Shown: positions 8,161 through 17,678 of the stretch, one piece after another | How the letters are laid out: every line of letters starts with the position of its first letter | How positions within the stretch are numbered: the first letter of the stretch is position 1 | From: Shewanella sp. MTB7 | GTDB taxonomy: Bacteria; Pseudomonadota; Gammaproteobacteria; Enterobacterales; Shewanellaceae | Length of the DNA stretch: 64,000 bases | Assembly (NCBI RefSeq): GCF_027571385.1 | Contig: NZ_CP085636.1 | Span: 5,566,501 to 5,630,500, forward strand | Direction of reading: 5' to 3' | Notes under the pieces: model-generated | Told to the model about the DNA's origin: nothing | Database searches by the model: none | The model's input: the letters and a program-made list of their open reading frames with translations, nothing else | Position numbers and translations under genes: made by a program

Positions 8161-9171
8161 ATGATTCTCAAGACTAAGCGACTTCAAAATACCAAAACAC
8201 CACAAACTGTAGCAGGCCAAAAACAGGAGCAGAGTGTCGCCTTCTTTCTACGTCGAGCCTACAAAGACCATAAGCAAGTACTGGTCATCAATGACTTTAA
8301 GTTCACTTTTAACGATGAGACTGCCCAGATTGATCACCTGATTATTTATCCTTATGGCTTTGTGTTGATCGAATCAAAAAGCATTAAAGGTCATGTCAAA
8401 GTTAACAAACAAGGTGAATGGACTAGAAGCCATAGCAGCAAGTGGCAAGGAATGGCATCGCCCATCAAACAAGTAGAGTTACAACAGGCCTTATTAAAAG
8501 AGCTACTACGCGAACATAAAAGCGAGATATTAGGTAAGTTACTGGGTATAAAGCAGCAGGGGTTCAACATGCGCTGTTGGGATCAACTCTGCGCCATATC
8601 CAGCGATGCTGTTATCGATAGAAACACTATGTCGGCAGCAGTCTCAGACAAGCTAGTAAAGTCGGAGTTTCTAGTCGATAAGCTAGATAAACTGATGAAC
8701 ATCAGAAACAGATTAATGAGAGTCATAAACATTAGCGACACTCGCCCTGACTTCTCACAGAAAGAGTTAGACTCTATAGGCTCCTCACTACTCGAACACC
8801 ATATCGAAAGCCAGCAGATAGGAAGCCAGCAGATAGAAGCACCTATCACACCGCCGACACTGATTGAACCAGCGACGATCCACCCCCAAACACCGCTATA
8901 CCAGCATGCTGTTCAGAGCCCAAACAAAGCACCACTGAATACACCCATATTACAAAACGAATTACGCTGTAAACATTGTGGTGAACCAACCAACTACACC
9001 CCAATGCCAGGTAAATTCGGCTACTACATTAAGTGTAATCAGTGCACTAAGAACACCCCCATGAAGCAAGCTTGCCCCCAGTGCCAAAGCAAGAACACCA
9101 AGGTACAAAAACGACAAGAAACCTACACGTTGAACTGCCAAGAATGTGGCAGTGGACTGAGAGTGATTTAG
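8161..9171 (+). CDS. NERD-domain (nuclease-related) protein with C-terminal zinc ribbons
   Basis: The 336-residue protein has an N-terminal NERD domain (about 15-135), with the nuclease-like core AQIDHLIIYPYGFVLIESKS: the Asp and the Glu-x-Lys (ESK) fit the PD-(D/E)xK-like NERD signature. A linker rich in Gln/Pro/Thr (about 215-260, with SQQIGSQQIEAP repeats) leads to two C-terminal zinc ribbons with CxxC pairs (CKHCGEP, CNQCTKN, CPQCQSK, CQECGSG; about 270-335), as in topoisomerase-type C4 fingers. NERD proteins probably act on DNA, but the substrate is unknown. Degraded copies of its 3' and 5' ends lie downstream at 9904-10172 and 10352-10581. Confidence 0.8.
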   Translation: MILKTKRLQNTKTPQTVAGQKQEQSVAFFLRRAYKDHKQVLVINDFKFTFNDETAQIDHLIIYPYGFVLIESKSIKGHVKVNKQGEWTRSHSSKWQGMASPIKQVELQQALLKELLREHKSEILGKLLGIKQQGFNMRCWDQLCAISSDAVIDRNTMSAAVSDKLVKSEFLVDKLDKLMNIRNRLMRVINISDTRPDFSQKELDSIGSSLLEHHIESQQIGSQQIEAPITPPTLIEPATIHPQTPLYQHAVQSPNKAPLNTPILQNELRCKHCGEPTNYTPMPGKFGYYIKCNQCTKNTPMKQACPQCQSKNTKVQKRQETYTLNCQECGSGLRVI

Positions 9172-14121: not shown

Positions 14122-14150
14122 ATATGGGGGTCATCTGTTTCAGAACCAAG
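14122..14150 (-). promoter_or_regulatory. Sigma-32-type heat-shock promoter of groES-groEL
   Basis: On the minus strand CTTGGTT and CCCCATAT are separated by 14 bases, close to the sigma-32 consensus CTTGAAA-N13-CCCCATNT. The 5' leader would be about 90 nt. No CIRCE inverted repeat is visible. Confidence 0.65.
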
Positions 14151-14252
14151 GCCTTTACAAAAAAAAATCCATTTTTTTTAACTCGATTTTATAAATGCCG
14201 CTTCAATCCTGATAGAATTGCCCCCCCTTCAGTAATAAGACAAGACTTTCAC

Positions 14253-15608
14253 ATGAGAGACAGACACGGGTTGCTTACTCAGCCAATTGGTCGTGTACTG
14301 CTAAATATGAGCCTACCGAACCTGATTGGTATTTTGACCATTCTAGGGTTCAGTCTTGTCGACACATTTTTCATCAGTCAGTTAGGGACTGAGTCTCTCG
14401 CGGCGATTAGCTTTACTTTCCCTATTACGTTAGTCATTTCAAGTATTGCCATCGGCATAGGTGCTGGAGTGTCGACCAATTTAGGCCGGCTTATCGGCGG
14501 CGGGCAAGCACCTAAGGCTAAGGTGTTTCTGCATGACTCTTTACTGCTGACCTTCTTCTTAACCGCCTTTATATCCCTGTTGGGAAGCCTGTGTATCGAG
14601 CCACTATTTAGCTTGCTCGGTGCCAATGACTCGAGTTTGCCTCTCATCCATGACTATATGTTTATCTGGTATTTGGGGGCACCACTGTTGGTTATTCTAA
14701 TGGTGGGCAATCAAGGCCTTCGCGCCACGGGGGATACTAAGTCTCCAGCTAAAATAATGATGTTAGCCGCGCTGATTAATTTGATTTTAGATCCTCTACT
14801 TATTTTTGGCATAGGGCCCTTTCCACGCTTAGAGATTCAAGGCGCGGCCATTGCCACGGTTATCTCTTGGGCAGTCGCGTTATCACTATCGAGTTATCTG
14901 TTAATACTTAAACGTCACTTAGTGGAATTTGCAGGCTTCAATATCACTCGACTTAGATATAACTGGAAAAAGCTCGCTCATATTGCTCAACCTGCCGCCA
15001 TGATGAACTTAATGAACCCCCTTGCCAATGCCGTCATTATGGCTATGTTGGCGCGTATCGATCATGGTGCAGTTGCCGCCTTTGGCGCGGGCACACGCTT
15101 GGAGTCGGTACTGCTAGTTGTGGTGATGGCCCTCTCGTCTAGCTTAGTGCCGTTTATTGCACAAAATTTGGGCGCTGGCCAAACCGAGCGAGCCCGTGAA
15201 GCGTTGCTGTTATCACTTAAATTTGTACTGATTTTTCAGACCTTGCTTTATTTGCCACTGTATTTCTTTGCCGGATCAATTGCCCAGCTTTTCAGTAGCG
15301 ATCCTCAGGTGATCGAGTGGTTAACCTTCTATATTATTATGTTGCCCGCCGCTTATGGCCCACTGGGCGTAGTCATTTTGTTGGCGACGTCACTCAACGC
15401 TTACCACAGACCCATGTGTTCACTGGTGCTCAATGTATGTCGTCTGTTCTTAGTGATGTTGCCATTGGCCGCATTAGGCTCCTATTTAGGGGGCGTCAAA
15501 GGCTTGCTCCTAGCACTGCCTATTACCAATACCTTCCTCGGCATTGCCTGTTATATATTGGCAACCAAAATCTCAGAGCCAGCAAAAATCGAACCATCAT
15601 TGGCATAA
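14253..15608 (+). CDS. MATE family multidrug efflux transporter
   Basis: The 451-residue product has about twelve membrane spans in two halves, the MATE pattern. It starts RHGLLTQPIGRVLLNMSLPNLIGILTILGFSLVDTFFISQLGT, where PxxxG and DTxFI(S) are typical of the first helix pair. These pumps export cationic drugs and dyes in exchange for Na+ or H+. The frame is open from 14124, but residues before the ATG at 14253 do not fit the family, and an upstream start would overlap the groES promoter. The gene lies directly before the broken qnr gene; fluoroquinolones are common MATE substrates, though the pairing may be chance. Confidence 0.9.
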   Translation: MRDRHGLLTQPIGRVLLNMSLPNLIGILTILGFSLVDTFFISQLGTESLAAISFTFPITLVISSIAIGIGAGVSTNLGRLIGGGQAPKAKVFLHDSLLLTFFLTAFISLLGSLCIEPLFSLLGANDSSLPLIHDYMFIWYLGAPLLVILMVGNQGLRATGDTKSPAKIMMLAALINLILDPLLIFGIGPFPRLEIQGAAIATVISWAVALSLSSYLLILKRHLVEFAGFNITRLRYNWKKLAHIAQPAAMMNLMNPLANAVIMAMLARIDHGAVAAFGAGTRLESVLLVVVMALSSSLVPFIAQNLGAGQTERAREALLLSLKFVLIFQTLLYLPLYFFAGSIAQLFSSDPQVIEWLTFYIIMLPAAYGPLGVVILLATSLNAYHRPMCSLVLNVCRLFLVMLPLAALGSYLGGVKGLLLALPITNTFLGIACYILATKISEPAKIEPSLA

Positions 15609-15711
15609 AAACGGCTTATCCACCAACCAAAAACCGTCAACACAGCAAGGAAACCTTATGCACGCCAGTAATAGAATCTTCAGCGAAACCAGCTTCAACG
15701 AAGATGAACAA

Positions 15712-15974
15712 TACCCAAGCAACCTCATGATGCTCGTTTCAGAGCTCCCGTAGGATAGCTGAACAAGGCAGTGATTGAGGATAATGGTTATTCCCTTGTC
15801 GATATCACTAACGCAGTGCAGGGATTCTACGGGAATTCCCGAAGGGCATGGCGAGAAGCAACATGCTTCTGTGTTATGAAATATTGAATTAGAATAACTA
15901 GTCCTACTATTTCATGCCTTGAACTCTGTCACTTCTCGACATGCTGAATCCTGCATTTTGAAGTAGTTTGGGTA
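15712..15974 (+). mobile_element. Miniature inverted-repeat element, TACCC family, copy 1
   Basis: About 263 bp with ends TACCCAAGCAACC and AGTAGTTTGGGTA as imperfect terminal inverted repeats. It has no coding capacity. Ends match copy 2 at 16180-16439 over about 35 bp (shared GCTCGTTTCAGAG on the left and CTGAATCCTGCATTT on the right), while the interior differs. The right flank begins TA; the left flank is AA, so a clean TA duplication is not seen here, which fits a later deletion or point change. Confidence 0.75.
15783..15816 (+). repeat. Shared miniature-element core
   Basis: AATGGTTATTCCCTT, 12 bases, AACGCAG. The same core occurs in the other TACCC element and in both 266-bp-type elements. 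Confidence 0.7.
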
Positions 15975-16179
15975 TATAAGATGCAATCTTTGAGGACTGC
16001 CAGTTTTAAACAGTGCAACTTGAGCATGGCCAGCTTTACTGGAGCAAAGTGCTTTGGCATTGAGCTGCGAGAGTGCAATCTGCAGGGAGCCGATTTTGGC
16101 CAAGCCAGTTTTGCCAACCATATCACCCACAAGACTTTCTTCTGCTCAGTCTATATTACCGCCTGTAATCTGGCTTATA

Positions 16180-16439
16180 TACCCAAACTACCTGGAAACG
16201 CTCGTTTCAGAGGTCTTGCGCGAGTTCAATTCTAGGCGTATTAGTATTAGAATGGTTGCTCCCTGTTAAGCTAATACAACGACGAAGTGGGCTTGCGTAA
16301 AGCCTTCGTTGATGGGTTTTAATGCACTTTATTCTGCGTTATTGATTTTGCTAAGGGAACAACCATTACCTACAATCAATATCTTGCCTAAAGCGCATTA
16401 AATTCCCACTGAATCCTGCATTTCCAAGTAACTTGGGTA
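16180..16439 (+). mobile_element. Miniature inverted-repeat element, TACCC family, copy 2
   Basis: 260 bp, bounded by TACCCAAACTACCTGGAAA and its imperfect complement TTTCCAAGTAACTTGGGTA, flanked by TA on both sides. Removing it and one TA restores the qnr reading frame, which gives direct evidence for the ends and for a TA target. The interior has two opposed copies of the AATGGTT core (16251-16283 and 16334-16367), so the whole could fold into a long hairpin. TA targeting points to a Tc1/mariner-like (IS630-type) transposase supplied elsewhere. Confidence 0.85.
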
Positions 16440-16462
16440 TATTAACTTCGAAGGAGCCCTGC

Positions 16463-16498
16463 TGGAGAAGTGTGAGCTGATGGAGAAGTGTGAGCTGA
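16463..16498 (+). repeat. 18-bp tandem duplication in broken qnr
   Basis: TGGAGAAGTGTGAGCTGA occurs twice in direct succession. It duplicates the peptide MEKCEL in frame, six residues more than in QnrA. Confidence 0.9.
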
Positions 16499-16733
16499 TG
16501 GACAATTGTTGGCGCGGTGCTAACTTATTGGGATCTTCGATGAAGGGCTCAGCTCTCAGTGGTGGAGAATTTTCCCAATCCCAGTGGGGCACCTTTGAAT
16601 TATCTGGCTGTAACTTATACCGTGTCGAGCTTGATGGGCTTGACCCTCGCAATGTGAAGCTTGAAGGGGTGATGATAAACCAGTGGCAGCAGGAACAACT
16701 ACTGGCACCACTTGGCCTTATCGTGACACCAGA

Positions 16734-17678
16734 TTAAATCCAAGACTTGATAGAGCCACGTAACCGCTCCTCACGACCACAGCCTTTACCTGCATTACAG
16801 TTTTCAAGTGCGCTCATCATATGATCGATAAATCGCTGACTGGCTAAACTGATAAAACGTCTTGAGGGATAAACCAAATAGCACTTGCCGAGGTAAGGTT
16901 CCACATCTGCAAACAGCATGGTTAACTCCCCTGTCTCGACAAATTCTCGGGTCACTTCTATGGGTAAAAACGCAATTCCACGACCTTTTAAACTCGCCTC
17001 TAAACAGAGCTGAATACTGTTGAGACACAGGTTACCTTTCACACCTATAGTCATGTCATTGCCAAAGGGAACTTCATTGAAAATACGCCCATTAGGGTAA
17101 CGAAACAGGATAGAATTATGCTTCTCAAGATCTTCTGGCAGCATTGGCGTCCCAGCCTTAGCCAGATATTCTGGGCTAGCGACAAAATGCAGCTTCTCTG
17201 TCAGCATTTCTCGAGCCACCATCTCATTTTCGTTAAATGAATCTTCTACCATAAAGGCAAGATCGATATTATTGCGGATCATATCTTGCTGCTCTGTGCT
17301 AACAATCAATTCGACCGTAAGCTCAGGGTTATGATCCATAAATTCGAAAATACCATTAGCAATATCAAGCAGCTCAGGAACGGGAAAAATATGAATACGT
17401 AAGTGCCCGCCGATCTCGGCTTCAGTGTCAGTTAACTCCACCATGGTCTGCTCAAGATCACCAAGAATCGACAAGGTCTTATCGTAGAAGTGACTCCCTG
17501 AAGCCGTTAATGTCATAGAGCGGCTTTGACGATGAAACAGTTTTATACTCAAATCGTCCTCAAGGGATTGCAAACGACGACTCACTGTGGATTTGGGCAG
17601 ATTTAACAGATCCGCCGCTTCAACTAGGCTACCTGTTTCTACAATACGATGAAATAGGGCAATATCTTCAGTTTTCAT
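16734..17678 (-). CDS. LysR-family transcriptional regulator
   Basis: The 314-residue protein has the LysR winged helix-turn-helix at 1-60 (ALFHRIVETGSLVEAADLLN, then KSTVSRRLQSLEDDL) and a periplasmic-binding-like effector domain (about 90-295). It is read divergently from the MFP-RND pump genes that start 230 bp away, the usual layout for a LysR regulator of an adjacent efflux system. The stop overlaps the end of the broken qnr gene on the other strand by 4 bases. The effector is unknown. Confidence 0.9.
   Translation of the reverse strand: MKTEDIALFHRIVETGSLVEAADLLNLPKSTVSRRLQSLEDDLSIKLFHRQSRSMTLTASGSHFYDKTLSILGDLEQTMVELTDTEAEIGGHLRIHIFPVPELLDIANGIFEFMDHNPELTVELIVSTEQQDMIRNNIDLAFMVEDSFNENEMVAREMLTEKLHFVASPEYLAKAGTPMLPEDLEKHNSILFRYPNGRIFNEVPFGNDMTIGVKGNLCLNSIQLCLEASLKGRGIAFLPIEVTREFVETGELTMLFADVEPYLGKCYLVYPSRRFISLASQRFIDHMMSALENCNAGKGCGREERLRGSIKSWI

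What the first reader, a model, noticed from the sequence alone, without database searches (positions are those of the whole stretch)
15658..16737. Chromosomal qnr gene decaying through two miniature elements, a deletion and a tandem duplication
Seen directly: qnr-like peptide fragments in order, split by a 263-bp and a 260-bp element, with a frame jump at a TGCCAGTTT microhomology and an 18-bp duplication. Known: Qnr proteins protect gyrase from quinolones and have reservoirs in Shewanella and Vibrio. Inferred: the reservoir gene has been lost here by repeat-driven decay, recorded step by step. One step is exactly reversible (excise 16180-16439 plus one TA). Losing a resistance gene this way in a natural host is unusual.
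Basis: partly seen in the sequence, partly recalled or inferred. Interest (0 to 1): 0.88.

Follow-up and report, generated by a model that had tools for sequence, protein, structure and literature searches.

The report
Quinolone-protection gene broken by mobile inserts
One of two copies of a quinolone-protection gene in this bacterium has recently been broken by two small mobile DNA inserts, a deletion and a duplication, while the second copy is intact; a related species carries the same insert at the same spot.

Summary
Between a MATE gene and a LysR gene lies a qnr (pentapeptide-repeat, gyrase-protection family) pseudogene, cut by a 263-bp and a 260-bp miniature element; about 122 bp are missing and 18 bp are duplicated. 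Syntenic intact genes exist in related species. Three corrections. (1) Qnr is not lost from the genome: an intact 218-aa qnr of another lineage lies elsewhere. (2) The decay looks recent: the pieces carry about 2.5 times the nonsynonymous change of the sister branch, while LysR and MATE are near even. (3) It is not a one-off: genome G125 (Shewanella woodyi by recalled length only) has the same element at the same TA, same orientation, and G062, closer to G125, has an intact gene. The two qnr copies of the element are sisters (UFBoot 96) and share a 21-mer variant found at no other place in 129 genomes. Parallel insertion or a very short exchange is unresolved. A 2008 paper noted stop codons in S. 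woodyi qnr without knowing the cause. Ordinary kind of event, with one odd coincidence.

The parts
15658..15709 (+). 5' stub of the qnr pseudogene, about 17 codons from ATG
   Evidence: Position and reading frame aligned by eye with syntenic relatives; too short for a family score
15712..15974 (+). Miniature element 1 (263 bp, TACCC..GGGTA); left target copy changed to AA, right TA at 15975-15976
   Evidence: 9 full-length copies at about 91% or more in the genome; same element at the same place in G125
15977..15997 (+). Short qnr stretch between element 1 and the deletion junction
   Evidence: Aligned with G062 and G125
15998..16006 (+). Deletion junction TGCCAGTTT; about 122 bp missing against G125 and G062
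   Evidence: Offset of blast segments against G125 and anchor positions in G062 and G125
15998..16178 (+). Middle qnr piece
   Evidence: NF033086 E 2.6e-29; 86% identical to G062
16180..16439 (+). Miniature element 2 (260 bp) with TA on both sides
   Evidence: 6 full-length copies at 88% or more
16459..16494 (+). 18-bp tandem duplication, in frame
   Evidence: a six-residue gap in G062
16440..16737 (+). C-terminal qnr piece with stop
   Evidence: NF033086 E 4.9e-32; 82% identical to G062
14124..15608 (+). MATE transporter gene, upstream syntenic neighbour
   Evidence: PF01554 E 3.3e-49
16734..17678 (-). LysR-family regulator gene, downstream convergent neighbour, overlapping the qnr stop
   Evidence: PF03466 E 2.3e-29

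Best explanation
A chromosomal qnr gene kept by selection between the MATE and LysR genes was inactivated recently in this lineage. Two non-autonomous TA-target elements (MITEs) inserted into it, presumably moved by a transposase acting in trans (inferred; none found). A deletion of about 122 bp and an 18-bp duplication, probably slippage between the short near-repeats that pentapeptide-coding DNA contains (inferred), broke it further. An intact qnr of another lineage in the same genome may have made the loss tolerable (inferred). Shown: anatomy, family, intact syntenic relatives, intact paralogue, multicopy elements, excess nonsynonymous change.
For: Family and pieces. Syntenic qnr beside LysR in 16 of 16 syntenic stretches fetched (MATE seen in 15, L076 starts at a contig end). 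Intact paralogue. Multicopy elements on TA (45 of 61 copies gave a clean target). About 19.6 nonsynonymous changes on the window branch against 7.9 on the G062 branch, mean over 12 outgroups that share history, with LysR 12.2 against 10.8 and MATE 16.1 against 12.9 amino-acid changes.
Against: No transcript or phenotype is known. The middle and C-terminal pieces have no internal stop, so a short peptide could still be made. The nonsynonymous excess is about 12 changes only, and synonymous sites are saturated. The deletion and duplication mechanism is not shown. The transposase was not found.
Confidence: 0.9

Rival explanations
1. Parallel insertion: element 1 entered the same TA of the syntenic qnr independently in the G000 and G125 lineages, from related source copies, because the site or region is a local hot spot.
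For: G062, closer to G125, lacks the element and is intact. Both genes were constrained until late. G125 flanks carry no G000 tract. Element-1 copies in G125 and G062 also sit 33 bp apart in one homologous region in the same orientation.
Against: Uniform targeting gives about 3.6e-4 expected coincidences (my arithmetic: 11 x 30 copies, about 453,000 TA from 71 per kb, two orientations). Apart from TA, the 45 targets show only an A+T lean. The two copies share a variant seen nowhere else, and both have T at 15977 where G062 has C.
Confidence: 0.5
2. Exchange: the element-bearing site passed between the lineages by a very short recombination tract.
For: Sister copies (UFBoot 96); shared variant; sites 15708 and 15977 next to the element agree between G000 and G125 against G062.
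Against: Sites 15699 and 15709 agree between G000 and G062, and 15705 and 15711 with neither. Flanks are about 79-81% identical in G000 and G125, and the tract would have to end within a few bases on each side.
Confidence: 0.3
3. Common descent: the insertion predates the split of the G000 and G125 lineages and was lost or replaced in G062.
For: Same TA, orientation and shared variant. Same-site elements of G062 and G125 diverge slowly: 25 of 1424 sites against 91 of 1769 in 200-bp flanks (my sums; one failed flank alignment left out).
Against: The two qnr elements differ at 11 of 267 sites while fourfold-site distances of the hosts are 0.7-1.0. G062 and G125 qnr show 7 nonsynonymous against 20 synonymous differences over codons 20-218, so the G125 gene was constrained after its split from G062. 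None of the other 10 G000 copies shares a site with the 50 sampled in G062 and G125.
Confidence: 0.15

Closest known systems
Shewanella woodyi qnr, Swoqnr (Sanchez et al. 2008, PMC2556341; passages seen)
   Different: The paper left open whether it was a sequence error or a pseudogene and, in the passages seen, names no inserted element.
Chromosomal Qnr family (NF033086)
   Same: Both larger pieces match model positions 57-120 and 126-211.
   Different: Broken; each piece is below the whole-protein cut-off of 240 bits.
Bacterial MITEs with TA target (review PMC10969869; passages seen)
   Same: Short, terminal inverted repeats, multicopy, no transposase inside.
   Different: No autonomous partner identified; 264-, 267- and 474-bp classes share the ends in the loci examined.

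Membership tests
Qnr family (NF033086) | Sequence match to the family model | tested here: met
   Two pieces, E 2.6e-29 and 4.9e-32
Qnr family (NF033086) | Complete reading frame over the 240-bit cut-off | tested here: not met
   102.5 and 111.4 bits, pieces apart; it is a pseudogene of the family
Qnr family (NF033086) | Protection of gyrase from quinolones | not testable with these tools
   Needs an assay
MITE | Terminal inverted repeats | tested here: met
   Arms of 37 nt, 78% complementary, for element 2 (I2); for element 1 the ends TATACCCAA../..TTGGGTATA
MITE | Multicopy and without transposase gene | tested here: met
   9 and 6 full-length copies; no long ORF inside
MITE | Target duplication | tested here: met
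   TA on both sides in 45 of 61 sampled copies of element 1; element 2 here has TA on both sides
IS630/Tc1-type MITE | Autonomous element with the same ends | tested here: inconclusive
   16 DDE_3 matches in the genome; 10 loci read, none flanked by paired ends of this type

The most novel reading that the evidence does not exclude
The TA near codon 18 of this qnr lineage is a recurrent landing site for one MITE variant, hit at least twice in different Shewanella species, so that qnr in marine reservoirs is switched off repeatedly, and perhaps reversibly, at one exact place.
Probability: 0.15. Interest if true: 0.65.

Novelty: new member of a known kind. Interest (0 to 1): 0.4.

Why it matters
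Chromosomal qnr in Shewanella is usually discussed as a reservoir; here one lineage of it is being lost through mobile-element insertion while a paralogue stays intact. It offers a likely cause for the stop codons that a 2008 paper reported in S. woodyi qnr. The same element at the same TA in two species makes target recurrence, or very short exchange between species, testable.

Tried and rejected
Another pentapeptide family: rejected, far weaker scores. Rfam families in the window: none at gathering score. Plasmid origin: of 253 plasmid records with a match none covers 80% of the 4-kb query; the listed rows match groES or a short qnr stretch. IS630-type partner: 10 of 16 loci read; single TACCCAA or TTGGGTA words in three, no paired ends. 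Longer element with the same ends: only a 474-bp one, without an ORF of 120 aa, in the loci examined. Exact 33-base end pattern in viral contigs: none. A G000 tract in the G125 flanks: not seen. Papers on a MITE in qnr: none in the listings, which cover an open-licence library and list the best rows only. PMC2394961 (mobile elements of S. oneidensis) is not held and was not read. Ages from private changes are rough: element 1 has 3 changes unique among 49 copies, element 2 has 6 private among 8 copies. The model control also rings below cut-off in 9 of 14 control genomes, over it in none, so only strong matches were used.

Full report
Setting. The window lies at 5566501-5630500 of a 6,367,435-bp single-contig genome, G000. 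Named relatives of its LysR gene are mostly Shewanella drafts. G125 (5,935,403 bp) and G073 (6,353,406 bp) have lengths that I recall for S. woodyi and S. psychrophila; no call confirmed these names.

Anatomy. A qnr start at 15658 is followed after about 17 codons by element 1 (15712-15974), a short qnr stretch, a junction at 15998-16006, a middle piece to 16178, element 2 (16180-16439), an 18-bp tandem duplication (16459-16494) and a C-terminal piece with a stop at 16737. Searched apart, the middle and C-terminal pieces match the Qnr model at E 2.6e-29 and 4.9e-32 and Qnr chains of solved structures at E 1.1e-20 and 1.1e-24.

Relatives. Of the 18 stretches, two are paralogue loci. In the other 16 the order qnr, LysR recurs, with MATE seen in 15 and groES in 14; the rest end before them. 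G062 has an intact 219-aa gene. In G125 one blast segment runs through element 1 unbroken, 511 columns at 80.8%. An in-frame TAA follows the element there, and the first ATG-started qnr ORF downstream is 143 aa. G125 keeps the stretch that the window lacks; the offset is 122 bp. By my reading of the rows, 48 genomes have the LysR orthologue at 66% or more, and 40 of them have an over-cut-off qnr within 5 kb. The eight others are G000, G057, G094, G027, G046, G063, G037 and G009. In G057 and G009 MATE lies beside LysR with no qnr between; in the other five fetched stretches the probes found neither MATE nor qnr within 4 kb.

Not lost from the genome. A stop-free qnr over the family cut-off lies at 952555-953175. 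It is a 218-aa ORF with 338 bits on the Qnr model and 353 bits on the QnrVC model, whose cut-off of 460 it does not reach. The window pieces are 61% and 55% identical to it, but 86% and 82% to G062: another lineage. In the genus 58 of 129 genomes, this one included, have an over-cut-off qnr; G125 and G062 show one match each.

Elements. Element 1 has 9 full-length copies at about 91% or more in G000; one search lists 18 in G062 and 19 in G125 at 94% or more (my count). Full-length copies at 88-97% are listed for 11 further genomes, with only five candidates scored per genome. Copy identity does not follow host distance, which suggests movement between species (inference). Element 2 has 6 full-length copies at 88% or more. 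No autonomous partner was found.

Timing. Fourfold-site distances are 0.7-1.05 between G000 and G062 or G125, and 0.13-0.21 between G062 and G125. The pieces carry about 19.6 nonsynonymous changes on the G000 branch and 7.9 on the G062 branch (mean of 12 outgroups that share history), while LysR (12.2, 10.8) and MATE (16.1, 12.9; amino-acid changes, 10 outgroups) are near even. G062 and G125 qnr differ by 7 nonsynonymous and 20 synonymous changes over codons 20-218. So both genes were constrained until late and both insertions look recent. The order of the lesions cannot be read.

Coincidence. Element 1 sits at the same TA in the same orientation in G000 and G125, not in G062. The two copies are sisters (UFBoot 96 in a 49-copy tree; FastTree 0.885 on 41 copies). 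They share a base found in no other place by an exact 21-mer search of 129 genomes; a second change inside the 21-mer would hide other carriers. Uniform targeting gives about 3.6e-4 expected coincidences (my arithmetic). Against exchange: informative sites of the left flank split 22 with G000, 18 G062 with G000 and 18 neither, and close to the element 15708 and 15977 agree with G000 while 15699 and 15709 do not. Element-1 copies 33 bp apart in one homologous region of G125 and G062 hint at local hot spots. Parallel insertion and short exchange remain open; common descent is least likely.

Literature. Passages of PMC2556341 say that Swoqnr presents two stop codons and that the authors could not tell error from pseudogene. 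Passages of PMC10011109 name S. algae as the qnrA reservoir. Listings showed no paper on a MITE in qnr.

Verdict. Observation confirmed; decay right; loss of the reservoir gene overstated. The kind of event is ordinary; the same-site element in two species is the odd part.

Noticed in passing
L063:2697-2767 and L064:2643-2711: G062 and G125 share a partial tandem copy of the 3' end of qnr just after its stop.
   Followed up: no
L188 and L189: Element-1 copies in G125 and G062 sit 33 bp apart in one homologous region, same orientation, near a T-rich stretch.
   Followed up: partly
L191/L196, L193/L210, L236/L252, L242/L254, L244/L255: Five same-site element pairs of G062 and G125 differ at 25 of 1424 sites against 91 of 1769 in their 200-bp flanks (my sums, one failed flank alignment left out): the elements change more slowly than their surroundings.
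   Followed up: partly
L224:2117-2308: In G090 a lone internal qnr fragment (residues 102-165 of the G062 protein), apparently another remnant.
   Followed up: no
L222:3760-4708 and L223:1358-1747: The LysR gene is split into two frames in G078 and matches only in its 3' part, with a TAG, in G007.
   Followed up: no
window:9887-10144: An 85-aa ORF repeats the C-terminal zinc-ribbon-like part of the 336-aa ORF at 8161-9171, as if partly duplicated (by eye).
   Followed up: no
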